From: Zoogloea sp.
Lineage (GTDB): Bacteria > Pseudomonadota > Gammaproteobacteria > Burkholderiales > Rhodocyclaceae
Reading direction: 5' to 3'
NCBI RefSeq assembly: GCF_023150065.1
Contig: NZ_JAKLLN010000012.1
Span: 1-64,000, forward strand
Length of the DNA: 64,000 nucleotides
Shown here: one piece after another, positions 219 through 15,514 of the stretch
Position numbering within the stretch: position 1 is the stretch's first letter
Layout: every line of letters starts with the position of its first letter
The notes under the pieces: generated by a model
Told to the model about the DNA's origin: nothing
The model's input: the letters and a program-made list of their open reading frames with translations, nothing else
Database searches by the model: none
Position numbers and translations under genes: made by a program

Positions 219-722
219 ATGAAGGCTTTGCGCATTCTTCTACAACTCGTGATTCTTGGCATGGGCGGGATTGCGCTTGGAGTGCTCATCTCTCATCCGG
301 TCGCAGAGATCAAAAGTACTCTCGCACTTCTTGGTTTCTTGGCGGTTCTTCTGGGATTGACCCTGGCGCTCAAGGAGTACACCGAAAGTCGCTCGGTGCC
401 TGGGCATGGACTCAGCTTCAAACCGATGGGGACCGTCTTGCTCTTATTGGGTGCATTCGGCGTTTTTCACGGGGCGAGCTATCTCGTTGGTAGCCAAGTA
501 CTGCCCGATGGCAGTGGCACATGCCGTGCCGCATGTGGGCTCATACTCCTGACATCGCAGTCGCTTGGTGAAACAGCCGCAAGGGTGCTTGCTTTCGGCC
601 TGTCGTCAGGCACGGGCTTATTTCTGTGCTATTTGGGCTTCAGGATTCGCGGTGTGAGGGTGAGCGACAACACGCTGCTCACCAACTTCACATTGCGCGG
701 ACGGGATAAGGAGAGAGAGTGA
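219..722 (+). CDS. hypothetical multi-pass inner membrane protein
   Basis: 167 residues from ATG 219; an in-frame TTG at 186 would add 11 unconvincing residues. About four hydrophobic segments are visible (near residues 5-25, 29-50, 70-92 and 120-150), with a short charged C-terminal tail ending RGRDKERE. I recognise no family. It opens a run of small orphan membrane or exported proteins on the same strand (219-2661), in DNA clearly richer in A and T than the rest of the window, which suggests a recently acquired or fast-evolving patch. Confidence 0.55.
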   Translation: MKALRILLQLVILGMGGIALGVLISHPVAEIKSTLALLGFLAVLLGLTLALKEYTESRSVPGHGLSFKPMGTVLLLLGAFGVFHGASYLVGSQVLPDGSGTCRAACGLILLTSQSLGETAARVLAFGLSSGTGLFLCYLGFRIRGVRVSDNTLLTNFTLRGRDKERE

Positions 723-795
723 AAGAGGGTATCAGGGGAAGTGCTCCGGCTTCCCGTGCAGGAAGCCACGTCGGCAGCGCACTTCCACTTTGAAA

Positions 796-1050
796 ATGAA
801 CGCCTTTTGGCCCATTTTCGCCGACTTATGCCACGAAGCATTTGAGGCGTGCTCATTTAAGGAGCAATTGCTTTCCGAGTGTGCCGGAAATGAAGACATT
901 GCTTGGGCTGTCTTTTTTCATCTTCGCGGGCAGAGCATTTCGTGGTTGCATCAAGCGATCCCCGCGCTAGAACATCAAATTCCTTTTGAGCTTGTTCGCA
1001 GCGGCAAAGCTGATCTTGTCCGCAAATGCCTTCAAAGAATGCCCTGTTGA
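796..1050 (+). CDS. small protein resembling the DUF2384 toxin-binding domain
   Basis: 84 residues from ATG 796 (a TTG two codons upstream is also possible). The C-terminal half, WLHQAIPALEHQIPFELV followed by RSGKADLV and LQRM, follows the pattern of the MbcA/ParS/Xre antitoxin toxin-binding domain (DUF2384): a Trp-Leu, a Pro-x-Leu, a Pro-x-(E/D)-Leu and a terminal L-x-R-I/M. In that family such domains neutralise RES-type toxins. No toxin gene is visible next to it and the usual Xre DNA-binding part is missing. The similarity is read by eye; treat it as a suggestion only. Confidence 0.4.
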   Translation: MNAFWPIFADLCHEAFEACSFKEQLLSECAGNEDIAWAVFFHLRGQSISWLHQAIPALEHQIPFELVRSGKADLVRKCLQRMPC

Positions 1051-1299
1051 TGCGGAAGGCCATTCTCGCGGGGGTGTCACATCGGGCCGCTCGTCCTACT
1101 TGGTTGTGCGGAAGGAAAAAACAGACGCTCAATCTGTACGGCATAATGTGCTGCATTGAGAAGCAGGCGGCTAACGCAAGGGGCAGGAAGAGCGCGATGA
1201 ACGAGTCAGGCGGAGCGTTGGTATGCAAATGAAGGTTGAGGTCCGGTTGGCCTTGGCCGGACGCAGTCTGTTGCTCCTTATTTTTCGCTAGCCTTGTCC

Positions 1300-1803
1300 A
1301 TGCCCGTCAGAACTCACTTTCGAGTCGTACTTGCCATATGGTTGCTGGTCATCGCCGTTTGGATCGCGCTGCCAGGCCGCAATACCTATGGCAACCCGTG
1401 GATGGAGGAGCTGGTCGATTCCTGTACGACGTCGGACGGAACAAAGGTACGTCTGTACGTTGGCAGCGGCTTCTTGACGGCGTTCTGGTACTCCGTGACG
1501 ACTGAAGCCGGCTTGTTTTCCCTCGAAAGGCAGATCCTGCATGTCTACAGCGGCCCTGAATTGCACAAGCTCGCCTGTGCCGATAGGCAACTCAGCATCA
1601 CGGCAGAAACAGGCCCGATTGTCATCCAGGAGTCCGAACTGCCTGCGCTCCGTAAGAACCCACGCAATTACTCGAGTACGGAGTCTGGCGCATGGAGCAT
1701 GATTGGCTATGCAATCTCCGCGGTCCTTGCGGCGCTGGCTTTTGCTGTCGCGCCTCCGATTCGACGATTACGCGGAAAAGGGGGGGAACACGCTTGTGAC
1801 TAG
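1300..1803 (+). CDS. hypothetical membrane-anchored protein
   Basis: 167 residues from ATG 1300 (TTG 1294 is an in-frame alternative). An N-terminal hydrophobic helix (residues about 8-25) leads to a roughly 100-residue soluble portion with three cysteines (C39, C93 and one at the C-terminus) and a second hydrophobic helix (about 133-152) before a basic tail. This topology suggests a domain held between two membrane helices, probably on the periplasmic side. No known family is recognised. It lies among other small orphan genes on the same strand. Confidence 0.5.
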   Translation: MPVRTHFRVVLAIWLLVIAVWIALPGRNTYGNPWMEELVDSCTTSDGTKVRLYVGSGFLTAFWYSVTTEAGLFSLERQILHVYSGPELHKLACADRQLSITAETGPIVIQESELPALRKNPRNYSSTESGAWSMIGYAISAVLAALAFAVAPPIRRLRGKGGEHACD

Positions 1804-1880
1804 CGATGTTGTCTTGCTGATCACCCAAATAGTCTTGCGCTTCGGCGCCGTTTATCTTGACCCTTGAGCACTATTACTCC

Positions 1881-2210
1881 ATGGAAATTGAGCCTCCGAG
1901 CCTGAACGTCCCGCTTGCGCGCAAGGAGCGCTGGGGGCTCCTGCTCGTGCTGGTATGTGCCGGAGTCACCGGCGTTGCTGCGTTATTCAGCCCGCCCTTC
2001 GCCCTTGTTTTTTCTGCGTCTTCGATTGTCGGGCTGCCTGTCCTGCTGGCTGTGATGTTTCCGTCTCCGATCTCAGCAAGACTCTCCGCCTGGGGCGATC
2101 TTGGCCGCATCGTTGTTGCAGGCGCACTGTTCGGGTATCTGGCGCTGGCAAAGAAAGTCCTCGTCCCTTTCGTGGTGGTGGTTATTGAACATGCGCTTGG
2201 CTTTGTGTAG
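1881..2210 (+). CDS. hypothetical small inner membrane protein
   Basis: 109 residues from ATG 1881; an in-frame TTG at 1857 gives a 117-residue version. Three hydrophobic segments are visible (about residues 17-37, 40-58 and 72-103), preceded by a short polar N-terminus. No family recognised. Its last 20 bases overlap the start of the next gene, so the two are probably translated together. Confidence 0.5.
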   Translation: MEIEPPSLNVPLARKERWGLLLVLVCAGVTGVAALFSPPFALVFSASSIVGLPVLLAVMFPSPISARLSAWGDLGRIVVAGALFGYLALAKKVLVPFVVVVIEHALGFV

Positions 2211-2661
2211 GGATCGGTCTAGGCAGTGGCATAGGGCAAGGGGACAGGCGTTCCGGCGCCTTTTTCTCGCCCCCTTGTTGCTGATCCTGACCACCGCTTC
2301 TTCCGCCGCCTGCACGGGCTCACAGGACGAAAATTTCGATGCCTTCTTCGCCAGGTTCTCGACGTCCATGAGCTTTGCCTTGTCTCGTATGCCGCCTGTG
2401 GTTCCATCGAGCCGGGTGGTCGATGGCAAGGATGAGCCGGTCACCGTGCAGACGAGGACATCAAGGGCCGAGTTGCGGCACGCGGGAACGCTTGAAAGTC
2501 AGATGCGGAGCAATGGCCTCAAGGCTCAGAAGGTCCGCGAGTCGGCGACCGTGGTTGAAGTCGTAATCGTCAGGCCCGATACCGACTGGCAGGTGAGCTA
2601 CTCTTTTGGCCTGAAGGCGAGGTGCTGGTATCTGCGCCGCATTGACGACCCGTCGCTGTAG
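2191..2661 (+). CDS. hypothetical exported protein, DUF4348-like
   Basis: 156 residues from ATG 2191, which lies inside the end of the preceding gene. A basic N-terminus and a hydrophobic run ending TTASSAAC look like a signal peptide, possibly a lipoprotein signal although the -3 Leu is absent. The following segment, with the pattern FDAFFARFSTSMSFALSRM, resembles the start of DUF4348-type periplasmic proteins (F-x-x-F-x-x-F, then F-x-x-S-R). The C-terminus is beta-like. Function unknown. It is the last gene of the A/T-rich patch. Confidence 0.5.
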   Translation: MRLALCRDRSRQWHRARGQAFRRLFLAPLLLILTTASSAACTGSQDENFDAFFARFSTSMSFALSRMPPVVPSSRVVDGKDEPVTVQTRTSRAELRHAGTLESQMRSNGLKAQKVRESATVVEVVIVRPDTDWQVSYSFGLKARCWYLRRIDDPSL

Positions 2662-2719
2662 TCTAACCACCTTGTCAGTACCCGCCGCCCGTCCGGCACC
2701 CACCCACCCGAGGCCCTCG

Positions 2720-3253
2720 ATGACCCCACAAACCGCTTCCCTCATGGCCGAATACAACCGCTGGATGAACGACCGCCTATATGCCGCGGCGGCGACCCTC
2801 GACCCGGCGGTGCTGACGGCGGACAGGGGGGCGTTCTTTGGTTCCATCCTGGGCACGCTGAACCACATCGCGGTGGCTGACACGATCTGGCTGCACCGCT
2901 TTGCGCAGCATGAGGCGGCGTTTCCGGCCCTCGATGCGCTGTCGGGGTTTCCCCGGCCTGCATCCTTGACCCAAGCCCTCGCGCCGGATCTGGCGGGGCT
3001 GGGCCAGTACCGGCGTGGGCTGGATGCCCTGATCGAGCGCTGGGTTGCCGGGCTGACGCCCGAGCATCTGTCGGCTGATCTGGCCTACAGCAACATGGCG
3101 GGCGTCCATTCAAGCCGGTGTTTCGGGGCCTTGCTGCTGCACTTCTTCAACCACCAGACGCACCATCGCGGCCAGGTCACGACGCTGTTGTGTCAGGCCG
3201 GCGTGGATGTCGGCGTCACCGATCTATTGGCGGTCATTCCGACCACTGCATAA
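2720..3253 (+). CDS. DinB family protein
   Basis: 177 residues. It matches the DinB/YfiT four-helix metal-binding fold. Three histidines sit where the family binds a divalent metal: H49 in LNHI and H145 and H149 in the NHQTHHRGQ motif. Members include damage-inducible proteins and metal-dependent thiol transferases or hydrolases; the exact activity cannot be read here. ATG 2720 is chosen because the 26 upstream in-frame residues are Pro/Thr-rich and unlike the family. The VOC gene follows 9 bases later and is probably co-transcribed. Confidence 0.85.
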   Translation: MTPQTASLMAEYNRWMNDRLYAAAATLDPAVLTADRGAFFGSILGTLNHIAVADTIWLHRFAQHEAAFPALDALSGFPRPASLTQALAPDLAGLGQYRRGLDALIERWVAGLTPEHLSADLAYSNMAGVHSSRCFGALLLHFFNHQTHHRGQVTTLLCQAGVDVGVTDLLAVIPTTA

Positions 3254-3262
3254 GGAGTACCC

Positions 3263-3649
3263 ATGCCAGGCCCCGCCCGTGCCGGACTTTTCATCTACGC
3301 CCTCGATCCCGAGCGCGTTGCCGATTTTTATTGCGCCGTGGCTGGCATGGCCCGCCTGCATGCCACGCCGGAGCTGATCGTGCTCGAATCCGCCGATATC
3401 CAGCTGCTGGTGCACCGGATTCCGCCGCCCTTCGCCGTGGGCATCGTCATCACCTCGCCGCCCCAGCGGCGCGAGGATACGGCGCTCAAGTTCTTCTTCA
3501 GCGTGCCCAGCCTGGATGCGGCACGCTTGGCGGCCCGGGCGCTGGGGGGCGAGGTGTTTGCCGAGAACTGGCAGGGGCCGGGCTTTACCGTGTGCAACGG
3601 GATGGACCCGGAGGGGAACGTGTTTCAGGTGCGGGAGTTTTCTGCGTGA
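3263..3649 (+). CDS. VOC (glyoxalase/bleomycin resistance) family protein
   Basis: 128 residues, the usual length of a single vicinal-oxygen-chelate domain formed of two beta-alpha-beta-beta-beta units. Visible signs are the start LFIYALDPERVADFYCAVAG, the central IQLLVHRIP and the terminal NGMDPEGNVFQVRE, where the Glu near the end is the usual metal ligand position. The family covers glyoxalases, dioxygenases and drug-binding proteins, so the substrate is unknown. It follows the DinB-like gene closely, with start ATG preceded by AAGGAG. Confidence 0.85.
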   Translation: MPGPARAGLFIYALDPERVADFYCAVAGMARLHATPELIVLESADIQLLVHRIPPPFAVGIVITSPPQRREDTALKFFFSVPSLDAARLAARALGGEVFAENWQGPGFTVCNGMDPEGNVFQVREFSA

Positions 3650-3699
3650 GACGCGGCGCCCGGGTGGGGCCGCTCGAAGCGCATTTCTGAGGGGCACGC

Positions 3700-4212
3700 A
3701 TGCCATTCACACCTTTGCACATGGGGCCCGGGCTGCTGATCAAGGCGGTGCTGCAGGGGGCGTTTTCCCTGATGGTCTTTGGCTGGGCGCAGATCGTGAT
3801 GGATATCCAGCCGCTGGTGGTGATCCTGACTGGTGAGGGGCACCTGCATGGTTTCACCCATACCTGGATCGGGGCGTCCCTGCTGGGCGTCGCGTCGGCT
3901 CTCAGCGGGAAGTACCTTTCGGAGTTCGGCTTGCGCCTGATTGGGTGTCGGCGGTTTGTGCCCATCAGCTGGCCGGTGGCCGTGCTGTCGGCCTTCGTCG
4001 GCACTTTCAGCCATGTGCTGCTTGACGGGATCATGCATGCGGACGTGGAGCCCTTCTGGCCCCTGACCCGGGACAACGGTCTGCTCGGGCTGGTGTCGGT
4101 GCGGGCCATGCACTGGTTTTGCCTGGGGAGCGGGGTGGTGGGGGCGGTGCTGTATTTCATCGTGGCCAGCCGGCTGGCTCCGCGGGACGCTGACGGCGAG
4201 GCGTCACCCTGA
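3700..4212 (+). CDS. membrane protein of the metal-dependent hydrolase type (DUF4184/YdjM-like)
   Basis: 170 residues with four or five hydrophobic helices. The start MPFTPLHMGPG and the later motif SHVLLDGIMHAD followed by EPFWPL match the pattern of the YdjM/DUF4184 family of membrane-bound putative metal-dependent hydrolases, where His and Asp of H-x-x-x-D are thought to bind metal. HGFTHTW adds further histidines. The biochemical role of the family is not settled. A small membrane protein gene follows. Confidence 0.65.
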   Translation: MPFTPLHMGPGLLIKAVLQGAFSLMVFGWAQIVMDIQPLVVILTGEGHLHGFTHTWIGASLLGVASALSGKYLSEFGLRLIGCRRFVPISWPVAVLSAFVGTFSHVLLDGIMHADVEPFWPLTRDNGLLGLVSVRAMHWFCLGSGVVGAVLYFIVASRLAPRDADGEASP

Positions 4213-4340
4213 TCGTTGGTGACTTGACTGTGTGGGGGTTCCAGGCGTTTGCCCCGGCCTTTGATCTGCCGCATTTCCGGCCCCCTCTGGTGGGCCGGCT
4301 GGCATCATCTGCCCCATCTGACAAACGCAGCGTGGCTCCC

Positions 4341-4604
4341 GTGTTCGAGTTTTTCGGCAATTTCTTTCTGGCGCTGGCCCTGGTGGGCTTGTTCCGCTTT
4401 CTCTGGATGCTTGGTGGCATGCTGATCCGGACGGGGGATGTGGGCAACGCGATCTTTGCGGTCGTGCTTCCGCTGCTCATGCTTTACCTGCTCGGGCTGA
4501 CCCTGCTGCCCATGGCGGACTGGGAGGGTTTTGTGGCGGGCTGTGCGCTGGGGGGTGTCTTGGTGTATCTGTTCCGCAGCAGAAAGCCGTCCGCGCCGGC
4601 CTGA
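4341..4604 (+). CDS. hypothetical small membrane protein
   Basis: 87 residues if read from GTG 4341; an ATG at 4224 in the same frame would add 39 low-complexity residues and I consider it unlikely. It has three hydrophobic stretches (about residues 5-28, 36-58 and 62-78) and a basic tail RSRKPSAPA. No family is recognised. A strong hairpin with a T-run serving the opposite strand lies directly downstream. Confidence 0.5.
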   Translation: MFEFFGNFFLALALVGLFRFLWMLGGMLIRTGDVGNAIFAVVLPLLMLYLLGLTLLPMADWEGFVAGCALGGVLVYLFRSRKPSAPA

Positions 4605-4623
4605 ACGGGGCGGAGTTGTGCAG

Positions 4624-4670
4624 GAAAAAAGGGGGGTGGCCGGGCACGAGGGAGGAATGCCCGGCCACCC
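4624..4670 (-). terminator. rho-independent terminator of the aldA operon
   Basis: A perfect 13-bp stem (4634-4646 with 4658-4670, left arm GGGTGGCCGGGCA) has an 11-base loop. On the minus strand it is followed by a C-run and a six-T run (4625-4630). It lies 95 bases beyond the aldA stop codon and would end the minus-strand catabolic operon. Confidence 0.85.
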
Positions 4671-4765
4671 GGCGGCGATGCCGGGAGGACGGCAGCCGCA
4701 AGACGACACGGAGAACAATCGATGATCGAGCGTTGGCGCAGGGGGTGAGCCCCGCGCCCGGACAC

Positions 4766-6205
4766 TCAGCCGTGCTGCATATACACCACGTGGGTTTCGG
4801 TGTATTCGTAGAGGCCGTGCTTGCCGTCGGCGCCGCCGATGCCCGACTTGCGGCGGCCGGCGTGGAAGCCCTGCATGGCCTCGAAGTGCTCCCGGTTCAC
4901 ATAGGTCTCGCCAAAGCGCAGCTCGCGGCAGGCGCGCATGGCGGCGTTGATGTCCCGGGTGAAGATGGATGAGGTGAGCCCGTACTCCGAGTCGTTCGAC
5001 AGGGTGATGGCTTCGTCGAGGCTGTCCACCACCTGGATGGGCAGCACCGGGCCGAAGATCTCCTTGCGCATGATCTCCATGTTGGCCGTGCAGCCGGTGA
5101 TGAGCGTCGGCTCATAGTGGAAGCCGCTCGGGCGGTCGGCCTTGCGGCCGCCGAGGATCACCTCGCCACCCTGCTCGCGGGCGCGGCTCACCATGGCGGC
5201 CACCTTGTCGAGGCCGATCTGATTCACCAGCGGGCCCATGTGCAGGTCGGCTTCGGCCATCGGGTCGCCGTAGCGGGTGGCGGCCATCAGGGCGCGCACC
5301 TTCTCGGTGAATTCATCGGCCACGGCCCGTTCCACGTACACCCGTTCGGCGCAGTTGCACACCTGCCCGGTGTTGATGACGCGGGAGTCCACCACCGCCC
5401 TGGCGGCCAGGTCCAGGTCGGCGCTGGCCAGCACGATGGCCGGGGCCTTGCCGCCCAGCTCCAGATTAACCCGGGTGAGGTTGCGCCCGGCGGCCTGCAT
5501 GATGGTGGAGCCGGTCTGCACGCTGCCGGTGAAGCTGATGAGGCCCACGTCCGGGTGGCTGCACAGGCTGGCGCCCACGTCGGCACCGCGCCCACCCACC
5601 AGGTTGAAGACGCCGGCCGGCAGGTCGGTCTCGGCCACCAGGCGGGCAAACTCGAAGGCGTTGATGGGCGTCTCCTCGCTCGGCTTGACCACGATGGTGT
5701 TGCCGGTGATGAGGGCCGGGGCCATCTTGCGGGCGATCAGGAAGAAGGGGAAGTTCCACGGCAGGATGCCGACGGTGACGCCGATGGGCTTGCGCTGCAG
5801 GAAGATGGTCTCGCCCGGGCGGTCGCTCTGCAGCACCTCGCCTTCGATGCGGCGGGCCCATTCGGCCATGTAGTCCATGTAGTCGGCGGTGAAGTCCACC
5901 TCGACCCGGGCCAGGCCGAGGATCTTGCCCTGCTCGCGGGTGATGATCTCGGCCAGGCGCTCCTTGTGCTGGCGCAGCTTGGCCGCAATGGCCCGCAGGT
6001 GGCCGGCGCGCTGGATCGCCGGGGTGCGCTCCCAGGCGGGCTGGGCACGGCGGGCGGCGGCGATGGCCTCTTCCACTTCGGCCGGGCTGGCGGTGGGGAT
6101 GCGGGCCAGCAGGGTGTGGGTGGCCGGGTTATGGACGTCGATGGCCGTGCCCGGGTCGGCCACGGTGAAGCGGCCGTCGATGAAGTTCTGGTACAGGGTG
6201 GTCAT
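4766..6205 (-). CDS. aldA: NAD-dependent aldehyde dehydrogenase, AldA (lactaldehyde/glycolaldehyde dehydrogenase) type
   Basis: 479 residues, the same length as E. coli AldA, with long stretches recognisably identical to it (TADYMDYMAEWARR, GILPWNFPFFLIARKMAPAL, SGIGGADGKHGL). AldA oxidises small aldehydes such as lactaldehyde and glycolaldehyde to acids with NAD in the cytoplasm. Visible catalytic features are the general-base Glu249 in NLELGGKAP and cysteines 283/285 in GQVCNCAERV. It is the last gene of the minus-strand operon with the Rieske protein, PQQ dehydrogenase, outer-membrane channel and DUF1097 protein. It would take the aldehyde made by the periplasmic dehydrogenase; the true substrate is inferred only. 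Confidence 0.93.
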   Translation of the reverse strand: MTTLYQNFIDGRFTVADPGTAIDVHNPATHTLLARIPTASPAEVEEAIAAARRAQPAWERTPAIQRAGHLRAIAAKLRQHKERLAEIITREQGKILGLARVEVDFTADYMDYMAEWARRIEGEVLQSDRPGETIFLQRKPIGVTVGILPWNFPFFLIARKMAPALITGNTIVVKPSEETPINAFEFARLVAETDLPAGVFNLVGGRGADVGASLCSHPDVGLISFTGSVQTGSTIMQAAGRNLTRVNLELGGKAPAIVLASADLDLAARAVVDSRVINTGQVCNCAERVYVERAVADEFTEKVRALMAATRYGDPMAEADLHMGPLVNQIGLDKVAAMVSRAREQGGEVILGGRKADRPSGFHYEPTLITGCTANMEIMRKEIFGPVLPIQVVDSLDEAITLSNDSEYGLTSSIFTRDINAAMRACRELRFGETYVNREHFEAMQGFHAGRRKSGIGGADGKHGLYEYTETHVVYMQHG

Positions 6206-6235
6206 GGTCTTTCTCCGTTTGGGTGGGGCAGGGGG

Positions 6236-6703
6236 TCAGGCGGGGCGTGCGAGCTTCTTGCCGACGGTCTCGGATACGTAGCCGAAGGCCAGGCCGGCTA
6301 CCCAGGTGAGGGCGACGAGGGCGATGCTGAGGTCGATCTTGCCGCCGGAGCCGAAGAAGGACGCCGCGCCCAGGAAGGCCGCCGGGGTGTAGGACAGGGC
6401 ACCGATGTCGGCCATGGCCACCAGCACGAAGGCCAGCACGGCGACGAGGGCGATGAGGGTGACGAGGCTGCCCCCCAGGGCCTGCACAGCGGCCAGGGTG
6501 AGGGCGGTGAGCAGGATGCCGGCGATGCCGGCGGGCAGGGCCTTGCCGATGCCTTCGTTGCCACCACCGGCGGCGAAGAAGGCGGCCCAGGCAACAAAGC
6601 CGATCCACGGGTTGAAGCCCAGGTCGGGGTTGCCGACGCTGAGATAGACCCAGGCCGCGACGAGGACGGCGATGCTGAAGGCGAGGGCGTGCAGGATCTT
6701 CAT
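6236..6703 (-). CDS. DUF1097 family inner membrane protein
   Basis: 155 residues, almost entirely hydrophobic, with five or six membrane helices. Motifs NPWIGFVAWAAFFAAGG and LGAASFFG are typical of DUF1097 (E. coli YcdZ-like), a family of unknown function sometimes discussed as transporters. ATG 6703 has a good AAGGAG ribosome site 8 bases upstream; the longer open frame above it is a shadow of the next gene. Its place between an outer-membrane channel and a cytoplasmic aldehyde dehydrogenase suggests it may move an alcohol- or aldehyde-derived compound across the inner membrane. That is inference. Confidence 0.85.
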   Translation of the reverse strand: MKILHALAFSIAVLVAAWVYLSVGNPDLGFNPWIGFVAWAAFFAAGGGNEGIGKALPAGIAGILLTALTLAAVQALGGSLVTLIALVAVLAFVLVAMADIGALSYTPAAFLGAASFFGSGGKIDLSIALVALTWVAGLAFGYVSETVGKKLARPA

Positions 6704-6762
6704 GAGGACACTCCTTGGGCTGGTTCGGGGTGGCCGGCCACCGCTGGCGGCCGGCCGGGGGC

Positions 6763-7641
6763 TCACCACACGTAGGCGTACTTGAGGTTCAGGCTGTTGT
6801 TGGCCACGTGGTTCTTGCCTTCGATGCTGCTTGAGTAGCGCAGGGTGATGGACTGGTTGTCGAAGGTGTGGAACATCATCCCCACCCCGCCGTCCAGGGC
6901 CCGGGCGCTGGGGTTGCCGTTGCGCCCGCTGGTGCTCTCGTAGTCGAGGGCGACGAAGGGCTCGAGCAGGCCGGTGACCCGGTAGCCCAGGCGGTGGTTG
7001 GTGTGGAAGGTGTTGCCCGGGCGGGTGCCGTCGGTCTTTTCGCTCTGGAAGACCATGCCGGCGTCGGCGGTCCAGCCCAGCTTGTCGGTGAGGCGCACGT
7101 CCCACAGGAAGCTGGAGAGGTTCTTCCAGTTGGTGTCGCTGACCCGGCTGTCGCCCACCGGCACCTGCAGGAAGGACTGGAAGCCGAAGGTGGAGCTGGG
7201 GGTGGGCTTCATCCAGATGGCAAAGCCGGTGAGCGGATCACCGATGCCGCTGCTGTGGCGGTCGGCGGCGTTGGTGGCGCTGTGGTTGCGCACGCCGATC
7301 TCCGGCACGATGACTTCATAGGCCAGACCGATCCGGGGGTTGGATTCGGGCGTCCAGAAGCGCACGTACTTGGACATGCCGACGATGGTCTGGCTGCCGT
7401 TGCCCTTCACCTTGTCGCCGGCGGCGTTGAAGGTGTCCTTGTTGTTCTGCACATAGGCGTACTGCACAAAGACGTTGAAGGGCTTGAAGTCCACCGGCAG
7501 CTCGTACTCGTGGGGGCCGATGACGTCGAAGGTGGTCTGGGCGAAGGCGGCGGGGGCGAGGCCGCCGGCCAGGCCGGCCACCAGCAGGGTGGCCAGAAGC
7601 CGCGGCGTGCCGCGGGGGGCGCGGAGGGGATGGGTGTGCAT
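6763..7641 (-). CDS. outer-membrane channel protein of the phenol-degradation (MetA) type
   Basis: 292 residues. A signal peptide ends PAAFA-QTTF near residue 35, and the rest alternates amphipathic beta strands, ending with the aromatic residue W typical of outer-membrane barrels (LKYAYVW). The organisation and the VGMSKYVRFWTPESNPRIG segment fit the Phenol_MetA_deg/SphA-like family, whose members accompany hydrocarbon and alcohol catabolism operons and are thought to admit hydrophobic substrates. It lies 101 bases after the PQQ dehydrogenase gene in the same operon. Confidence 0.85.
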   Translation of the reverse strand: MHTHPLRAPRGTPRLLATLLVAGLAGGLAPAAFAQTTFDVIGPHEYELPVDFKPFNVFVQYAYVQNNKDTFNAAGDKVKGNGSQTIVGMSKYVRFWTPESNPRIGLAYEVIVPEIGVRNHSATNAADRHSSGIGDPLTGFAIWMKPTPSSTFGFQSFLQVPVGDSRVSDTNWKNLSSFLWDVRLTDKLGWTADAGMVFQSEKTDGTRPGNTFHTNHRLGYRVTGLLEPFVALDYESTSGRNGNPSARALDGGVGMMFHTFDNQSITLRYSSSIEGKNHVANNSLNLKYAYVW

Positions 7642-7742
7642 GAAGTGTCTCCTTTTTCGTTTTTCAGGCGTGGCGGGCCCCGCTGCGCCGTCGGGATGAC
7701 GGTGCAGGGCCCGCTACGCGGGTGGGCTGAACCGGGTGGGGC

Positions 7743-9461
7743 TTACTTCTGGAGCTTGAAGACGTGGATCGTGCCGCCCTGGGGCACCACGGTCTTGTGG
7801 GGGAGAACGGCGTCGAAGGCGCCCTGCATGCGCTGGGCATCCACCCCCCAGCCCGACTGCACGGCGACGTACTGCTGGCCATTCACCTCGAAGGTCGAGG
7901 GCACGCCAGTGACGCCGGAAGGCATGGGCGTTTCCCACAGCACCTTGCCGTTCTTCGCGTCGAAGGCGCGGAACATGCGGTCATTGGTGCCGCCACCGAA
8001 CACCAGGTTGCCGGCGGTGGTCATCAGCGGGCCCCAGTTCATCTCGGGGTAGGTGTGGGTCCATACCTGCTTGCCGGTCTTCAGGTCCCAGGCCTGGATC
8101 TCGCCCACGTGCTTGCGCGAGGCCTCGGTCATGCGCACGTTGGTGAGGATGTTGTCGAGGGCGACGCCGATGTACAGGCTGCCGGCGTTGTACTTGACGG
8201 GCTCACCGGTGAGCTCGGAGCACAGGTTGTTGTTGGCCGGGATGTAGAGCAGGCCGGTGCCGGGGTTGTAGGCTTCGGGCGGCCAGTCCTTGCCGCCCCA
8301 CAGGGACGGACAGAAGTTCACCGTCTTGCCGGTGCCGGGGATGCGCTCGGGGTTGTAGCTGGGGCGGCCGGTCTTGGGGTCGAGCTTGGTGAAGACGTTC
8401 TGGGTCACGTAGGGCCAGGCGTCCACATAGTTGACCTTGTCCTTGGTGCGCTCGAGCAGCCACAGGTAGCCGTTGCGCCCGGCATGGACCAGGGATTTCA
8501 CCTTCTTGCCCTTGTAGTCCAGGTCGATCAGCAGCGGCGCGGAGACTTCGTCCCAGTCCCAGGCGTCGTTCCAGTGGTACTGGTGGTGGCCCTTGATCTT
8601 GCCGGTGTCCACGTCGAGGGCGATGGTGGAGTTGGCGTAGAGGTTGTCGCCGGGGCGGGTGTCGGGCATCCACGGGCCAGCGTTGCCCACGCCCCAGAAG
8701 GCCAGGTTGGTCTGCGCATCATAGGTGCCGGTGATCCACACCGAGCCGCCGCCGGTCTTCCAGGTGTCGCCGGGCCAGGTCTCGGCGCCGGCCTCGCCCG
8801 GGCCGGCGATGGTGTAGGTGCGCCAGGCTTCCTTGCCGGTCTCGGCGTCGAAGGCGGCGACAAAGCCGCGCACGCCCAGCTCGCCACCGGACGAGCCGAC
8901 CATGATCTTGCCCCGGGCGGCCAGGGGGGCGAGGGTCATGTAGTAACCCTTCTTCCAGTCGGCCACGGCCACCTTCCACAGTTCCTTGCCGGTGGCGGCG
9001 TCCAGGGCCACCAGGTAGGCGTCGGTGGTGGCCAGGTAGAGCTTGTCGCCATACAGGGCCACGCCCCGGTTGGTGGGGTGGAGCTGCATCAGCTCGTCGG
9101 GGATGGTCTTCTTGTAGCGCCACAGCTCCTTGCCGGTGGCCGCCTCCAGGGCGATGACCTGGTTGTTGGGGGTGGTCACGTACATGTAGCCGTTGTTGAC
9201 CATGGGCGGGGCCTGGTGGCCCTCGGTCATGCCCGTGGCGTAGGACCAGGCCGGCACCAGCTTGCCCACGTTCTGGCTGTTGATCTGCTTGAGGGCGCTG
9301 TAGCCCCAGCCTTCGTAGTTGCCCCGGTACATCAGCCAGTTGGCGGCCTCGGGCTTGGTGAGGCGCGCGTCGGTGACGGGCGAATAGGCGGGCAGGGCGG
9401 CGCTGGCGAGCATCGGCAGGGCGGCCAGGCTGGCGCACAGAGCCTTGAGTCGGATGGTCAT
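7743..9461 (-). CDS. PQQ-dependent alcohol dehydrogenase, methanol/ethanol family, atypical
   Basis: 572 residues: signal peptide (cleavage after about ASA-21), then an eight-bladed propeller with repeated A-x-D/E-x-x-T-G-K-x-x-W docking motifs. It oxidises alcohols in the periplasm with pyrroloquinoline quinone. Metal and cofactor residues are visible: E194 (GGELGVRG), N260 (GVGNAGPW), D302 as catalytic base and D304 two residues later (WDWD). Asp at catalytic +2 is the mark of lanthanide-dependent XoxF/PedH-type enzymes. The adjacent cysteines that normally form a vicinal disulfide are absent: QL (126-127) stands before NRG, while C384 and C414 remain. ATG 9461 is chosen for its GGAG spacing; ATG 9476 is an alternative. 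No cytochrome c gene is adjacent; a Rieske gene precedes it. Confidence 0.92.
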   Translation of the reverse strand: MTIRLKALCASLAALPMLASAALPAYSPVTDARLTKPEAANWLMYRGNYEGWGYSALKQINSQNVGKLVPAWSYATGMTEGHQAPPMVNNGYMYVTTPNNQVIALEAATGKELWRYKKTIPDELMQLHPTNRGVALYGDKLYLATTDAYLVALDAATGKELWKVAVADWKKGYYMTLAPLAARGKIMVGSSGGELGVRGFVAAFDAETGKEAWRTYTIAGPGEAGAETWPGDTWKTGGGSVWITGTYDAQTNLAFWGVGNAGPWMPDTRPGDNLYANSTIALDVDTGKIKGHHQYHWNDAWDWDEVSAPLLIDLDYKGKKVKSLVHAGRNGYLWLLERTKDKVNYVDAWPYVTQNVFTKLDPKTGRPSYNPERIPGTGKTVNFCPSLWGGKDWPPEAYNPGTGLLYIPANNNLCSELTGEPVKYNAGSLYIGVALDNILTNVRMTEASRKHVGEIQAWDLKTGKQVWTHTYPEMNWGPLMTTAGNLVFGGGTNDRMFRAFDAKNGKVLWETPMPSGVTGVPSTFEVNGQQYVAVQSGWGVDAQRMQGAFDAVLPHKTVVPQGGTIHVFKLQK

Positions 9462-9532
9462 GTCTGGTGTCTCCATTTATTGGTGTAGTGAGCGGGGGCT
9501 GCAGCTTCAGGCGCGACGGGTGGTGCGGGAAA

Positions 9533-10150
9533 TCAGGCGGACTTGGATACGCCGGGGTTCGAGGTGAAGGGGCCGGCCACCACCAGCACGCCGTCCTCCT
9601 CCTTCAGGGGAAGCAGGGGCAGGGTGCGCGGCGCCGGGCCGGCCACCACCTCGCCGGCGCGGCCGGGGGAGAACTTGGAGAAGTGGCAGTAGCACATCAG
9701 GGTCTTGTCCTTGGCCACCCATTCGGAGACTTCACAGCCCTGGTGGGTGCACACCGCGGAGTAGGCGAGCACGCCGGCCGCGGCGTAGGGGCGGGTTTCG
9801 TCGGTCAGGTCGGCGGGGGCGACCCGCACCAGGATCACCTTGTTGAGGCGGCTGCCATTGCGCACCTCGCCGCTGGCGGGCTCCAGGGGAAAGGCCTGCA
9901 GCGGCTTGGCATCGGGCAGGATTTCGGCGCCACGCAGGGGCACCGGTTGCCCGTTGGCGTCGCTGCGTACTAGCTGATCACCGACTTTCGGGCGGGAATG
10001 GGGGCCGGTGTCGGCGAGGGCCGATTTTCCTATTCCGAATCCGGCGCAGAGCAGCAGCGCCGAGCTGGCCCGCAGGGCTTCCCTTCTATCGGGTGATGAC
10101 AGGGTGTCGGGTGTGTCGGCGTTTTGTTGAGAGCACGGGGTCTTATTCAT
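9533..10150 (-). CDS. Tat-exported Rieske [2Fe-2S] protein
   Basis: 205 residues. A twin-arginine signal (DRREALRAS, residues 21-29, then a hydrophobic run and ALA) directs a folded protein to the periplasm. Box I is C134-T-H136-Q-G-C139 and box II is C153-Y-C155-H156. C134, H136, C153 and H156 would hold the cluster and C139-C155 would form the stabilising disulfide. Spacing is that of high-potential Rieske proteins such as cytochrome bc1 or arsenite oxidase small subunits. It is the first gene of the operon, behind a sigma-54 promoter, with AGGACAGGAAA before its ATG. It is probably an electron carrier for the PQQ dehydrogenase (inference from position). Confidence 0.9.
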   Translation of the reverse strand: MNKTPCSQQNADTPDTLSSPDRREALRASSALLLCAGFGIGKSALADTGPHSRPKVGDQLVRSDANGQPVPLRGAEILPDAKPLQAFPLEPASGEVRNGSRLNKVILVRVAPADLTDETRPYAAAGVLAYSAVCTHQGCEVSEWVAKDKTLMCYCHFSKFSPGRAGEVVAGPAPRTLPLLPLKEEDGVLVVAGPFTSNPGVSKSA

Positions 10151-10190
10151 TTTCCTGTCCTGCGTTCTGGGTTTAGGCCTGGCTTATTAG

Positions 10191-10205
10191 GCAAGGGCTG
10201 TGCCA
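10191..10205 (-). promoter_or_regulatory. sigma-54 (-24/-12) promoter of the Rieske-PQQ dehydrogenase operon
   Basis: On the minus strand the bases read TGGCACAGCCCTTGC, an exact TGGCAC-N5-TTGC consensus. The predicted transcript start is near 10180, about 30 bases before the Rieske ATG at 10150. The divergent gene encodes a GAFTGA-type activator and rpoN is present in this window. Confidence 0.9.
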
Positions 10206-10349
10206 AAGCGCCGCAGGAGGAAATTGAAAGAGTGCTTTGTGTTTATAAAAACACATTTAATTCAGTGGCTTGGTATTTTTTTTGGTGCCTTGCTTATGTA
10301 TTTGTATTTGAATTGGGTTTTTATTTTCTGCCGGATTCAAAACGGCGCC

Positions 10350-10386
10350 CGCTACAGGTGTAGCGGGGTGCACGCCAGGTGTAGCG
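10350..10386. promoter_or_regulatory. tandem palindromic upstream activating sites
   Basis: A perfect inverted repeat CGCTACA-GG-TGTAGCG (10350-10365) is followed by a second, partial copy ending GGTGTAGCG (10378-10386). The shared GGTGTAGCG blocks start 21 bases apart, two helical turns, as expected for cooperative dimers of a Fis-type activator. They lie about 150-190 bases upstream of the sigma-54 promoter. Identification as activator sites is inference. Confidence 0.65.
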
Positions 10387-10581
10387 TCACGAGTGTGCAA
10401 TTTGCCGTTCAATTTCTTATGTTGCGTTGCGATATTTGTGGGGGTATTCCGCAATGGGGAAAGTTTATTCACCGTTCTATTTATCGTGCGCTATGATCCA
10501 GCCACAAACAGGTGCTTTCGCAGGTGTGCACACACCGCAGGAGGCCCGCACCATGAGGCTGGCAATACGGAGGAGGTGGTC

Positions 10582-12555
<1,974 letters not shown>

Positions 12556-12579
12556 GCGCAGCATCAAGCGCCCCGGTGT

Positions 12580-13572
12580 TCAGGCCGGAGCCAGGGCCGG
12601 GGCCATGCCGCTGCCCGCCAGGCTGGCGGCCTGGGCCCGGGGGATGGCCGGGGAGCTGCGCGCCACCGAGGTGATCTGCTCGCGGAACCAGCGGCATTCT
12701 TCCTCGTAATGGCTGCGGTCGTGCCACAGCAGGTAAAAGCTCATCTTCGGGAAGTCGATGGGGGCTTCGGCAATCGCCAGGGGCATCATCCGGGCGCAGT
12801 GCTCGGCAAAGATCCGCGGGCTGGAGAAGAGCATGTCGGTCTCCAGCAGCAGATAGGGCACCAGGCCAAAGTAGGGCACGTAGGCCACCACGTTGCGCTT
12901 GAGGCGTTCCCGGGCCAGATGCAGGTCGATCACCCCCCGCTGGCCGACGGCGTAGGGGGTGGGCACCAGATGTTCGGCGGCCAGGTAGTCGGCGGCGCTC
13001 AGGGGGCGGCCGGCGAGGGGGTGGCTCTTGCGCATCAGGCACACCACTTCGTCCTCGAACAGCGGTGCCATGCGCAGGTTCTCGGGGGGCTGGGGCCAGT
13101 TGCCGATGACCACGTCGAGCTCGCCGCTCTCCAGGGCCCGGGCGTAGTCGAAGTCCGGCCCCAGGGAATGAAAGGCCACCTGGGAGTGGGGCGCAAACTT
13201 GCGCAGCTGGGCCACGATCTTGCCCAGCAGCACCGCGTTCAGGTAGTCGGGGGTGGCGATGTTGAAGACCCGGCGCGAGCTGGCCGCGTCAAACTTCACC
13301 TGCCGGACGGCGATGGCTTCGATCTGCTGCAGCGCGATCTTGACCGGCTCGAGCAGCCCGGCGCCCCGCTCGGTGGGGGTCATGCCATTGCGGCTGCGCA
13401 CCAGCAGCTGGTCACCGGTGATGTCGCGCAGCCGCCGCAGGGCGGTGCTGACGGCGGGCTGTGACTGGTTGAGGCGGCGCGCCGCCTTGCTCACGCTGCA
13501 TTCGGTGAGCAGGGCGTGGAGTACGCGCAGCAGGTGGACATCCATGGAATCCCAGGTGCAGTTCGCGGCCAT
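12580..13572 (-). CDS. LysR family transcriptional regulator
   Basis: 330 residues. The N-terminal winged helix-turn-helix is clear (LLRVLHALLTECSVSKAARR then LNQSQPAVSTALRRLRD), followed by the two-lobed effector-binding domain (LDVVIGNWPQPPENLRMAPL). The spacing and the VHLLRVLHAL start resemble the NodD/LinR-like branch. It converges on the sigma-54 activator gene (24 bases between stops) and lies downstream of phoD on the same strand, so its target is not obvious. The C-terminus after about residue 300 is Ala/Pro-rich and longer than usual. Confidence 0.9.
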   Translation of the reverse strand: MAANCTWDSMDVHLLRVLHALLTECSVSKAARRLNQSQPAVSTALRRLRDITGDQLLVRSRNGMTPTERGAGLLEPVKIALQQIEAIAVRQVKFDAASSRRVFNIATPDYLNAVLLGKIVAQLRKFAPHSQVAFHSLGPDFDYARALESGELDVVIGNWPQPPENLRMAPLFEDEVVCLMRKSHPLAGRPLSAADYLAAEHLVPTPYAVGQRGVIDLHLARERLKRNVVAYVPYFGLVPYLLLETDMLFSSPRIFAEHCARMMPLAIAEAPIDFPKMSFYLLWHDRSHYEEECRWFREQITSVARSSPAIPRAQAASLAGSGMAPALAPA

Positions 13573-13729
13573 GTCGGTGCTCCTTGAACGATATTTGTGT
13601 TGCAGTGCAAAAATCGTTCCATGGCGAAAAGCCCTGTCCAGGGGGCCCGTGGTCTGCAGTCCGGAGCCATCCCGGTGCCCCGGACGGTGTCGGGCACGGT
13701 TCTGGCACCGGGCTGGTGCGCCCGGCGCC

Positions 13730-15514
13730 TCAGGCGTAGCTGACGGCGCCGGCGGCGGACACGCTGATGGTCTTGCCGACGCTGGCCGAGTAGGTGCTGC
13801 TCTTCACCGTGCTCACAAACACGTATTCGCCCTTCACCGCGTCGGCGGTGACGGTGAATTGCAGGTAGCCGCGCTGACGGGTGTCGGCATAGGCCAGGTC
13901 GTCCACCAGCCCCAGCCCGGCGCCGATGGCGGCGGCACCGAGCTGTGCAGTGGCGGCGCTGCCGTCCAGGGCGGGGCCCAGGCTGCCGAGGCCGAGGGCT
14001 TCGAAGCCCGGTGAGCTCACCGAGGTGCCAGCAAATTCGTGGCCGACGGTTTGCCCGGCGAGGGTCGTCAGGGTGGCGAACCAGGCGTTGTGGGAGTCGC
14101 CGGAGAGGGTCACCAGCCGTTTGCCGAGGGGCCGGACGGATTGCAGAATGGCTTCCCGCTGCAGGGGGTAGCCGTCCCAGGCGTCCAGGTTGTAGGGCAG
14201 GCGCGGGTTGCTGGTGGCGGACAGCAGCGTGGTCTGGGCGGCAGTCAGGGGCTGGCCGGCGGCGCGGGTGATCTTGGCCCCCAGGTAGTCGCCGATGGCA
14301 GTCTGCACGGCAGCCTGGTTGGCTGCGCTGGGGTTGGCGAAGGCGGTGTTCTGGGCCTGCAGCACCGAGGCCGGCATCCACATGCGGGCCATGATGTCCT
14401 GGTTGCCGAGGATCTGCCAGGTGGCCGCTGACTGGGTGATGCCGTCCACCAGCCAGGCCTGCTGGGCCGGGCTGATCATGCGGTGGTTGGCGTCGCTGCC
14501 CGAGCCGAGGGCGGTGGCGTAGCGGGCCAGGCCCCCGTCGGCATCACCATAATTGTCGTACTGACGGTCGCGCCCCTCGATGCGGGTGTCGAGCATGTGC
14601 AGGCTGAGCAGGCGGCCAAAGTCGAAGCGGCGGTAGATCTTCAGCCGGTCACCGCCGGCGTCGCCGCGGATGGGGAGCCACTCGTGATAGGCCCGGGCGG
14701 CGTTGGCCTTGCGGGTGGCCCAGTCGCCCTGGGTGGCGCTGTCGTGGTTTTCGGCGCCGGTCACGTAGGCATTGTTGGCAAACTCGTGGTCGTCCCAGAT
14801 GGCGATGAAGGGCATGCGCGCGTGCACGGCCTGGAGGTTGGCGTCCGAGCGGTAGCGGGCGTAGCGGTTGCGGTAGTCGTCGAGGGTCACGATGTCGTGG
14901 GCGGGGGCGGTGACGCGGTTCAGCGCCACAGCGTCGGTATTGCCGTACTTGGCGGGGTCGGCACCGTATTCGTAGATGTAGTCCCCCAGGTGCAGGGCGT
15001 AGTCGGCGTCCGACCGCGCCGCGGCATCGTAGGCGTTGAAGTAGCCCTCGGAATAGATGGCGCAGGAGAACACCGCGAACTTCACGCTGCTGACGTCGGC
15101 CGTGGGCAGGGTGCGGGTGATGCCCACCGGCGAGGCCCTGCCCGTGGCGTCGATGAAGCGGTAGTGGTAGCGCTTGCCGGCGCTGAGGCCGCCGGCATCC
15201 ACCTTGGCGGTGAAGCCGGTGTCTGCGCTGGCCGAAACCTGGCCGGCGGACACGATTTCGCGGAACTCCGCATCGATGGCCACCTGCCAGCTCAGGGTGA
15301 TGGTGTCGTTCAGGCTGCCGGCGCGGGCGTGGGTCCACAGGATCACCCGGTCGGCGAGGGGGTCGCCGCTGGCAACGCCGTACAGAAAGTCCGCCGGCTG
15401 GGCAGTGCTGTTGTCGCTGCTGCCGCAGGCGCTGAGGAGCCCGGCGGCGGAGGCGGTGGTGAGGAGGGTGGCGGAGTGGCGGATGAAGTCGCGGCGGGTG
15501 TTGTCGAGGGGCAT
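13730..15514 (-). CDS. phoD: PhoD-like alkaline phosphatase, Tat-exported lipoprotein
   Basis: 594 residues. The start carries a Tat motif (T-R7-R8-D-F-I) and a lipobox L27-S-A-C30, so it is probably exported folded and lipid-anchored. An N-terminal beta domain (LYGVASGDPLADRVILWT) precedes the metallophosphatase core, with WDDHEFANN and SGDSHNAWFA motifs that hold the metals in PhoD enzymes. PhoD releases phosphate from mono- and diesters in the periplasm, using calcium and iron. It is divergent from a polyphosphate kinase gene, and a candidate Pho box with a -10 element lies between them. Confidence 0.9.
   Translation of the reverse strand: MPLDNTRRDFIRHSATLLTTASAAGLLSACGSSDNSTAQPADFLYGVASGDPLADRVILWTHARAGSLNDTITLSWQVAIDAEFREIVSAGQVSASADTGFTAKVDAGGLSAGKRYHYRFIDATGRASPVGITRTLPTADVSSVKFAVFSCAIYSEGYFNAYDAAARSDADYALHLGDYIYEYGADPAKYGNTDAVALNRVTAPAHDIVTLDDYRNRYARYRSDANLQAVHARMPFIAIWDDHEFANNAYVTGAENHDSATQGDWATRKANAARAYHEWLPIRGDAGGDRLKIYRRFDFGRLLSLHMLDTRIEGRDRQYDNYGDADGGLARYATALGSGSDANHRMISPAQQAWLVDGITQSAATWQILGNQDIMARMWMPASVLQAQNTAFANPSAANQAAVQTAIGDYLGAKITRAAGQPLTAAQTTLLSATSNPRLPYNLDAWDGYPLQREAILQSVRPLGKRLVTLSGDSHNAWFATLTTLAGQTVGHEFAGTSVSSPGFEALGLGSLGPALDGSAATAQLGAAAIGAGLGLVDDLAYADTRQRGYLQFTVTADAVKGEYVFVSTVKSSTYSASVGKTISVSAAGAVSYA

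What the first reader, a model, noticed from the sequence alone, without database searches (positions are those of the whole stretch)
4766..10150. Five-gene sigma-54 operon pairing a PQQ alcohol dehydrogenase with a Rieske protein
The order Rieske, PQQ dehydrogenase, outer-membrane channel, DUF1097, AldA forms one minus-strand operon with a promoter at the front and an intrinsic terminator at the end. Known PQQ alcohol dehydrogenases hand electrons to a cytochrome c, usually encoded next door; here the only redox partner is a Tat-exported Rieske protein. This suggests a different periplasmic electron route. The channel, DUF1097 protein and AldA complete import and oxidation of an alcohol to an acid. 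I know of no described system with this exact set.
Basis: partly seen in the sequence, partly recalled or inferred. Interest (0 to 1): 0.85.

Follow-up and report, generated by a model that had tools for sequence, protein, structure and literature searches.

The report
Alcohol dehydrogenase paired with Rieske protein
A Zoogloea bacterium has an operon in which a PQQ alcohol-oxidising enzyme, probably lanthanide-dependent, comes with a secreted iron-sulfur (Rieske) protein where related enzymes often have a cytochrome, a pairing kept in many bacteria that suggests an undescribed way of passing electrons from alcohols to respiration.

Summary
In detail: five minus-strand genes (Tat-signal Rieske protein, PQQ alcohol dehydrogenase, outer-membrane channel, DUF1097, AldA) lie between a -24/-12 promoter site and a strong terminator, beside a divergent sigma-54 activator. 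The five-gene set is a lineage speciality, but its core, Rieske plus PQQ dehydrogenase, is widespread: Pseudomonadota, Acidobacteriota, a Rokubacteria MAG, one Deinococcus. In 398 phylum-wide genomes, the 12 with this type of dehydrogenase and the 12 with this Rieske gene are the same genomes (five genera), genes adjacent in each. Most members have the lanthanide-type Asp. On the tree Rieske was gained first (the one Deinococcus keeps Cys-Cys), then Cys-Cys was lost. In Roseivivax a cytochrome c gene sits in the Rieske slot; an Acidobacteriota-rich subclade has no Rieske gene nearby. Most likely mechanism: PQQH2 passes electrons to the periplasmic Rieske protein, which relays them to respiration; the aldehyde goes to AldA. 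Electron transfer, substrate and metal are inferred. Six literature searches with Rieske as a term (open-access PMC only) showed no description of this pairing.

The parts
9533..10150 (-). Tat-signal periplasmic Rieske [2Fe-2S] protein, proposed electron acceptor
   Evidence: PF00355 above cut-off; twin arginine DRREAL, a short hydrophobic stretch and ALA; C134 H136 C139 C153 C155 H156 invariant in 85 of 85 rows counted, window included, some of them near copies; nearest solved structure 1nyk, Rieske protein, E 1.5e-35
7743..9476 (-). PQQ-dependent alcohol dehydrogenase of a clade without the vicinal Cys-Cys ring, with lanthanide-type Asp309
   Evidence: TIGR03075 589.4 bits, cut-off 480.05; H133, E199, W234, N265, D307, D309, R334 invariant in the 25 rows of A3; LHPTNRG in place of CCDVVNRG; nearest solved structure 6zcv; AlphaFold2 model with mean pLDDT 86.1, pTM 0.88
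6763..7641 (-). outer-membrane channel, Phenol_MetA_deg family
   Evidence: PF13557 84.5 bits
6236..6703 (-). DUF1097 membrane protein, four hydrophobic segments by a simple hydropathy count
   Evidence: PF06496 99.6 bits
4766..6205 (-). AldA-type (lactaldehyde/glycolaldehyde) dehydrogenase
   Evidence: NF007497 745.9 bits, cut-off 500; nearest structures 2opx and 2hg2/2ilu/2imp (Aldehyde dehydrogenase A, Lactaldehyde dehydrogenase) at 613 and 610 bits, next distinct sequence 410
10191..10205 (-). sigma-54 -24/-12 promoter core TGGCAC-N5-TTGC
10348..10367 (.). palindrome with 9-base arms, possible activator-binding site (not tested)
   Evidence: read from the sequence
10393..12555 (+). divergent GAF/AAA+/Fis sigma-54 activator (start codon uncertain)
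   Evidence: PF00158, PF01590, PF02954 above cut-off; a similar gene in 28 of 96 Rieske-dehydrogenase loci scanned, not always divergent
4625..4670 (-). intrinsic terminator, 14-bp stem, 9-base loop, T6

Best explanation
An alcohol-oxidation operon whose core is a two-protein redox module. The PQQ dehydrogenase (periplasmic, Sec-type signal, PQQ with a lanthanide ion predicted from Asp307/Asp309) oxidises an alcohol, probably a 1,2-diol such as ethylene glycol or 1,2-propanediol. Its reduced PQQ is reoxidised in two one-electron steps by the Tat-exported Rieske protein, not by a dedicated cytochrome c. The Rieske protein passes the electrons on, presumably to a general periplasmic c-type cytochrome and a terminal oxidase. 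The aldehyde is taken to the acid by cytoplasmic AldA. The channel and DUF1097 may help substrate or aldehyde cross the membranes. A sigma-54 activator switches the operon on. Shown: genes, families, residues, conservation, evolutionary order on the tree, promoter and terminator sequence. Inferred: electron transfer, metal, substrate, transport, downstream acceptor.
For: Phylum sample: the 12 of 398 genomes with a Cys-Cys-less dehydrogenase are the 12 of 398 with the Rieske profile hit, adjacent in all 12; the other 12 dehydrogenase places of that search have Cys-Cys and none has a Rieske gene in its +/-1.5 kb locus. Order sample: 10 of 399 genomes with the dehydrogenase at E <= 1e-140, all 10 with Rieske; 12 of 399 with Rieske, 11 with the dehydrogenase adjacent, the twelfth at a contig end. 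64 of the 75 loci with at least 50% identity have Rieske within 1.5 kb. One gain of Rieske, then one loss of Cys-Cys, is the simplest reading of the tree. Cytochrome c in the Rieske slot of Roseivivax. One cytochrome-like gene within 3 kb in 55 Cys-Cys-less Rieske loci with full flanks. Cluster ligands conserved, 85 of 85. Ring linked to electron transfer to cytochrome c550 (passage in PMC12997753). The host has PqqE and a separate bc1 operon with its own Rieske subunit. PQQ potential about +90 mV (passage in PMC11697101), below what is usual for Rieske proteins of this motif type (recalled).
Against: No biochemistry. 11 clade proteins without Cys-Cys have no Rieske gene in the held flank (10 in an Acidobacteriota-rich subclade, two of them labelled Pseudomonadales, and Roseivivax), so the partner is dispensable in some. 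Loss of Cys-Cys is not specific: a solved PQQ dehydrogenase (22vi) and distant members also lack it. The Deinococcus pair works, if it does, with Cys-Cys. The correlation of distances is r = 0.79 but rank correlation only 0.38, and shared descent alone can give it. The cytochrome count has a weak control: the 2 Cys-Cys loci with full flanks also gave 0. Of six Cys-Cys records viewed, only 3 have a cytochrome c gene nearby. 8 of the 12 genomes of the phylum sample are one genus. No complex model; no fold search ran.
Confidence: 0.7

Rival explanations
1. The Rieske protein is a maturation or protection factor (a redox or metal/PQQ-insertion helper, in the place of MxaJ/XoxJ/PedG), and electrons still go to a general cytochrome c encoded elsewhere.
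For: No MxaJ/PedG-like gene is among the five operon genes, while solute-binding-type genes stand beside two of six Cys-Cys enzymes viewed.
Against: Six cluster and disulfide residues conserved in 85 of 85 rows point to a working cluster; in Roseivivax the slot is taken by a cytochrome c; in Deinococcus a gene with a weak MoxJ-like score follows the pair, so helper and Rieske can coexist (TIGR03871 31.1 bits, cut-off 212).
Confidence: 0.14
2. The Rieske protein is an alternative iron-sulfur subunit of the cytochrome bc1 complex, co-regulated with alcohol oxidation.
For: Nearest solved relatives include bc-type Rieske proteins; prokaryotes with several exchangeable Rieske genes are known (a title in the reference list of PMC4013037).
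Against: Below the bc1 subunit cut-off (TIGR01416 28.9, cut-off 97.4), where the host's own subunit scores 227.5; weaker N-terminal hydrophobic stretch than that subunit (1.39 against 1.83); the host has a complete bc1 operon; co-occurrence is with the dehydrogenase.
Confidence: 0.07
3. An ordinary alcohol operon with a Rieske gene caught in it by chance.
For: Co-transcribed genes need not interact.
Against: The pair is kept across several phyla with different neighbours, and in both gene orders.
Confidence: 0.03

Closest known systems
ExaA/PedE/PedH-type quinoprotein ethanol dehydrogenases (TIGR03075)
   Same: Same family model, catalytic Asp and metal ligands; nearest solved structure 6zcv, a quinoprotein ethanol dehydrogenase; PedH-like lanthanide Asp (recalled)
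   Different: No vicinal Cys-Cys ring; a Rieske gene where ExaA/PedE have cytochrome c550 (ExaB/PedF, passages); no PedG, SoxYZ-like or metallohydrolase gene among the five
Arsenite oxidase AioAB (works-like comparison)
   Same: A periplasmic oxidoreductase with a Tat-exported Rieske partner (recalled)
   Different: AioA is a molybdenum enzyme; this Rieske is below the AioB cut-off (TIGR02694 48.6, cut-off 95.65)
Thermus/Meiothermus Tat-type Rieske proteins
   Same: 41-47% identity over 68-70% of the Rieske protein
   Different: In the two regions viewed they stand beside TauE/SafE exporter genes with no PQQ dehydrogenase annotated
PQQ dehydrogenase with a HiPIP gene (Variovorax plasmid)
   Same: Another iron-sulfur protein directly downstream of a PQQ dehydrogenase
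   Different: HiPIP is unrelated to Rieske; that enzyme has Cys-Cys; one record only
AldA lactaldehyde/glycolaldehyde dehydrogenase
   Same: Meets the family cut-off; closest solved enzyme by about 200 bits
   Different: Placed in a periplasmic alcohol-oxidation operon

Membership tests
PQQ dehydrogenase, methanol/ethanol family (TIGR03075) | Model score above cut-off; metal-ligand Glu and Asn, catalytic Asp | tested here: met
   589.4, cut-off 480.05; E199, N265, D307 invariant in 25 rows; which residues are ligands is recalled
Cytochrome-c-linked PQQ alcohol dehydrogenase of the ExaA/PedH/XoxF kind | Vicinal Cys-Cys ring by PQQ | tested here: not met
   LHPTNRG in place of CCDVVNRG
Cytochrome-c-linked PQQ alcohol dehydrogenase of the ExaA/PedH/XoxF kind | Cytochrome c gene in the same cluster (common, not universal) | tested here: not met
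   No CxxCH in any frame of 80 or more codons in window 1-20000; 3 of 6 Cys-Cys control records have a cytochrome c gene
Lanthanide-dependent PQQ alcohol dehydrogenase | Asp two residues after the catalytic Asp | tested here: met
   D307-W-D309; 74 of 79 Rieske-linked rows have Asp, 5 have Ala
Lanthanide-dependent PQQ alcohol dehydrogenase | Activity with La/Ce/Nd | not testable with these tools
   needs purified enzyme
Rieske [2Fe-2S] protein | CxH...CxxH ligands plus disulfide cysteines | tested here: met
   PF00355 above cut-off; 85 of 85 rows
Cytochrome bc1 Rieske subunit | TIGR01416 score; cytochrome b/c1 genes adjacent | tested here: not met
   28.9, cut-off 97.4; the bc1 operon is elsewhere in the genome with its own subunit at 227.5
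Arsenite oxidase small subunit AioB | TIGR02694 score; AioA adjacent | tested here: not met
   48.6, cut-off 95.65; no AioA among the genes scanned
AldA aldehyde dehydrogenase (NF007497) | Model score above cut-off | tested here: met
   745.9, cut-off 500
Sigma-54-controlled operon | -24/-12 site and AAA+ activator, both conserved | tested here: met
Sigma-54-controlled operon | Transcript start and dependence on RpoN | not testable with these tools
   needs RNA data

The most novel reading that the evidence does not exclude
A widespread, undescribed branch of periplasmic alcohol respiration: mostly lanthanide-type PQQ dehydrogenases whose physiological electron acceptor is a Rieske iron-sulfur protein. 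Once the Rieske partner was in place, the vicinal disulfide thought to serve cytochrome c was discarded, and a conserved histidine beside PQQ took over the electron exit.
Probability: 0.5. Interest if true: 0.87.

Novelty: new variant of a known kind. Interest (0 to 1): 0.75.

Why it matters
PQQ alcohol dehydrogenases are understood as cytochrome-c-linked enzymes, and what the Cys-Cys ring does has been debated (recalled). Here is a natural experiment: one clade took a Rieske partner and then lost the ring. That makes the role of the ring and the path of electrons out of PQQ directly testable with natural enzymes. It also flags many probably lanthanide-type enzymes in bacteria such as Methylobacterium, Methyloversatilis, Roseomonas and some Acidobacteriota whose respiratory coupling may be other than assumed, and Rieske proteins are possible new mediators for alcohol biosensors.

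Tried and rejected
Chance neighbourhood: rejected by the co-occurrence tests. Alternative bc1 subunit: made unlikely. A Rieske-dehydrogenase gene fusion: none noticed in the open-frame lists of the fetched loci, but I ran no search aimed at fusions. A Rieske gene in loci without one was sought with a profile: none in the 16 loci tested, 11 of them clade loci. A third universal partner: the small proteins of about 150 residues that follow the pair in some groups differ in sequence between groups, and the two tested matched no Pfam family. The terminator scan missed the terminator.

Rows dropped or limited: the tree left out L015, L020, L021, L118-L121 as near copies or partial, and hits matching under 350 residues; L085 is in it although frameshifted. 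One search used 47 of the 119 rows with the Cys-Cys columns masked. One search used 75 pairs, leaving out L041, L083, L085, L122. The 28 loci include two pairs of the same place (L103/L157, L105/L159), and an activator-like match anywhere in the locus counted. One search judged start codons by extrapolation. Gene calls come from a simple composition-based caller of mine. The genome search scored only the best 3 (dehydrogenase) or 9 (Rieske) candidates of each genome.

Literature: nine searches of the open-access PMC library; six had Rieske as a term, with 2 of 2, 30 of 58, 30 of 51, 23 of 23, 2 of 2 and 10 of 35 papers listed. Three had other terms (26 none found, 27, 81). Passages were read in PMC5023235, PMC11102522, PMC12997753, PMC10715153, PMC4013037, PMC4827864 and PMC11697101; the other papers were seen as listings only. 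None showed a Rieske protein as partner of a PQQ alcohol dehydrogenase (PMC11697101 discusses intracellular Rieske proteins and PQQ proteins of Bathyarchaeia as separate electron-transfer parts). Subscription papers are not held; a 2019 ISME J survey of rare-earth alcohol dehydrogenases could not be opened, so a description there is possible.
Full report
What is there. Five genes lie head to tail on the minus strand: a Rieske protein (9533-10150), a PQQ alcohol dehydrogenase (7743-9476), an outer-membrane channel (6763-7641), a DUF1097 protein (6236-6703, start chosen by me inside a longer frame) and an aldehyde dehydrogenase (4766-6205). The last gene meets the NF007497 cut-off, and its nearest solved structures are Aldehyde dehydrogenase A / Lactaldehyde dehydrogenase, about 200 bits above the next sequence. 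A divergent GAF/AAA+/Fis sigma-54 activator follows at 10393-12555 (+). The window is from a Zoogloea: the nearest genome locus is a Zoogloea MAG at 99% identity for the dehydrogenase. No frame of 80 or more codons with CxxCH is present in window 1-20000.

Control elements. A -24/-12 core stands at 10191-10205, 40 bases before the Rieske start codon. The same element with at most one mismatch is found upstream of the pair in 20 of 28 loci that carry an activator-like gene, 14-56 bases upstream in 19 and 215 in one, against 13 of 2000 shuffles; among 68 loci without such a gene in the held stretch, 3 have it. Eight of the 20 (L015-L022) are Zoogloea or near copies. A 14-base-pair stem followed by six T lies downstream of aldA.

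The conserved unit is the pair. Of the 75 genome loci with at least 50% identity, 64 hold a Rieske gene within 1.5 kb on the same strand. The 11 exceptions are discussed below. Annotated plasmid records show the same in Azoarcus, Roseomonas, two Paracoccus regions viewed, Alteromonas and Deinococcus, with various other neighbours and in both gene orders. The full set with DUF1097, channel, AldA and activator is found in 17 loci: L015-L029 and L088 (Zoogloea, Methyloversatilis, Derxia, Denitromonas and unnamed relatives), and G397, a genome of another family, in a different order (channel, DUF1097, AldA, Rieske, dehydrogenase; L157). Three more lack only the channel. That reshuffling argues that the proteins work together.

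Co-occurrence test. In 398 genomes drawn evenly from the phylum, a search with the dehydrogenase at E <= 1e-115 gave 24 places in 17 genomes. Twelve of the places (window included) lack Cys-Cys and all twelve have a Rieske gene adjacent; the other twelve have Cys-Cys and none has a Rieske gene in its locus. An independent search of the same 398 genomes with a Rieske profile gave 12 genomes, the same twelve. Eight of the twelve belong to one genus, so this is five genera. In 399 genomes of the order, 10 have the dehydrogenase at E <= 1e-140 and all 10 the Rieske gene; 12 have the Rieske gene, 11 with the dehydrogenase beside it and one (G604) where the contig ends. In 101 genomes of the family, 5 have this Rieske gene, window included, and all 5 have the dehydrogenase beside it. 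Outside these samples related Rieske proteins do stand alone (Thermus, Meiothermus, below).

What is special about the dehydrogenase. The catalytic and cofactor residues are intact, and Asp309 two residues after the catalytic Asp307 is the mark of lanthanide enzymes (recalled); 74 of 79 Rieske-linked rows have it and 5 have Ala. But the adjacent-cysteine ring is gone: the solved proteins aligned (6zcv, 6dam, 1flg, 1kv9) have two Cys before the NRG motif where this clade reads LHPTNRG or a variant of it, with His133 invariant in the 25 rows of A3. [quoted passage not shown] Loss of the ring in a clade that carries a Rieske gene is what one would expect if electrons leave by another door. The ring is also absent from some other PQQ proteins (a solved chain, 22vi; distant members), so its loss alone proves nothing. 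An AlphaFold2 model folds with confidence (mean pLDDT 86.1), but no fold search ran.

Order of events. In a maximum-likelihood tree with the Cys-Cys columns masked, the Rieske-linked proteins and the Rieske-less members of the clade form one group with Deinococcus as first branch (support 100/96). Deinococcus has both the Rieske gene and Cys-Cys; all the others lack Cys-Cys (branch 100/100). The simplest reading is Rieske gained, then Cys-Cys lost, then Rieske lost twice. The first loss is a subclade of 10 proteins, 8 labelled Acidobacteriota or its classes and 2 Pseudomonadales (no Rieske gene in the held flanks by profile). The second is Roseivivax, where a Cytochrome_CBB3-type cytochrome c gene lies directly upstream, in the Rieske slot. 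The order rests on a single Deinococcus sequence.

The Rieske protein. All six cluster and disulfide residues are conserved in 85 of 85 rows, the hydrogen-bonding Ser in 84, and Phe stands where bc1 proteins have Tyr (recalled) in 79. A Tat motif precedes a short hydrophobic stretch ending in ALA, weaker than that of the host's bc1 subunit (1.39 against 1.83 on the Kyte-Doolittle scale); a soluble periplasmic protein is likely but not shown. The host's bc1 operon with its own Rieske subunit, cytochrome b and cytochrome c1 is elsewhere. Distances of Rieske and dehydrogenase among 75 pairs correlate at r = 0.79 (permutation maximum 0.11 in 2000), but the rank correlation is 0.38, and shared descent alone can give both. 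Related Tat-type Rieske proteins exist in Thermus and Meiothermus beside other genes, so the Rieske family is not tied to the pairing.

Controls. Six plasmid records with a Cys-Cys PQQ dehydrogenase (motif checked) were examined: three have a cytochrome c gene nearby, one (Variovorax) has a HiPIP gene directly downstream, two have neither, none has a Rieske gene. Of 55 Cys-Cys-less Rieske loci with 3 kb of flank on both sides, one has a cytochrome-like gene (L042); the same count gave 0 in the 2 Cys-Cys loci with such flanks, too few to serve as a control.

Mechanism, with what is shown and what is inferred. Shown by sequence: gene set, residues, conservation, association, promoter and terminator. 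Inferred: alcohol oxidation at a PQQ-lanthanide centre; one-electron transfers from PQQH2 (about +90 mV, passage in PMC11697101) to the Rieske cluster; onward transfer to a c-type cytochrome or oxidase; AldA acting on the aldehyde. AldA-type genes are also near the pair in Paracoccus, Alteromonas, Azoarcus, Neptuniibacter and Lichenicoccus loci, and in Alteromonas an FMN-dependent alpha-hydroxy-acid oxidase gene lies in the same cluster. Diol to hydroxyaldehyde to hydroxyacid is therefore the best guess at the pathway; many loci have no AldA gene near, so substrates may differ. It works like AioAB arsenite oxidase in having a Tat-type Rieske partner (recalled), but it is not a member of that family.

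Verdict. The operon is real, and its core is a widely conserved and apparently undescribed pairing within a known enzyme family: a new variant of a known kind, with a clear decisive experiment. The claim of novelty is limited to the open-access library searched here. On checking, confidence in the electron-acceptor reading was lowered from 0.72 to 0.70 and the helper rival raised from 0.12 to 0.14, because of the low rank correlation, the empty control and the missing helper genes.

Noticed in passing
L146:5801-6142 (Variovorax boronicumulans plasmid): A high-potential iron-sulfur protein gene (PF01355) directly downstream of a Cys-Cys PQQ dehydrogenase: possibly another non-haem electron acceptor.
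   Followed up: partly
L078:6558-6950 (Roseivivax isoporae): A small cytochrome c gene sits where relatives carry the Rieske gene.
   Followed up: partly
L052, L054, L055, L056, L062, L063, L065, L067, L082: A subclade without Cys-Cys and without a Rieske gene in the held flanks; in L054 (Pfam) and, by similar sequence, L055 a class-V aminotransferase-like gene lies next to it. Their electron acceptor is unknown.
   Followed up: partly
L012, L013, L103, L104, L105: A subclade paired with Rieske but with Ala in place of the lanthanide Asp: the metal seems to have changed while the partner stayed.
   Followed up: no
window 10348-10367: A palindrome with 9-base arms between the activator ORF and the -24/-12 site, a possible activator-binding site.
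   Followed up: no
L155/L156 (genome G384) and other genomes of group g110: In 6 of 8 genomes of this group a Rieske-linked and a Cys-Cys PQQ dehydrogenase lie about 13-19 kb apart, so both types may serve one pathway.
   Followed up: no
L160 and L161 (Thermus, Meiothermus plasmids): Tat-type Rieske proteins of the same kind beside TauE/SafE exporter genes: another uncharacterised use of this Rieske family.
   Followed up: no
L014:9667-10557 (Deinococcus aetherius plasmid): A gene with a weak score to MoxJ-type quinoprotein-associated proteins follows the Rieske-dehydrogenase pair.
   Followed up: no
L038: A contig labelled Klebsiella pneumoniae MAG carries the pair at 62% identity; the label is probably a misassigned bin.
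   Followed up: no
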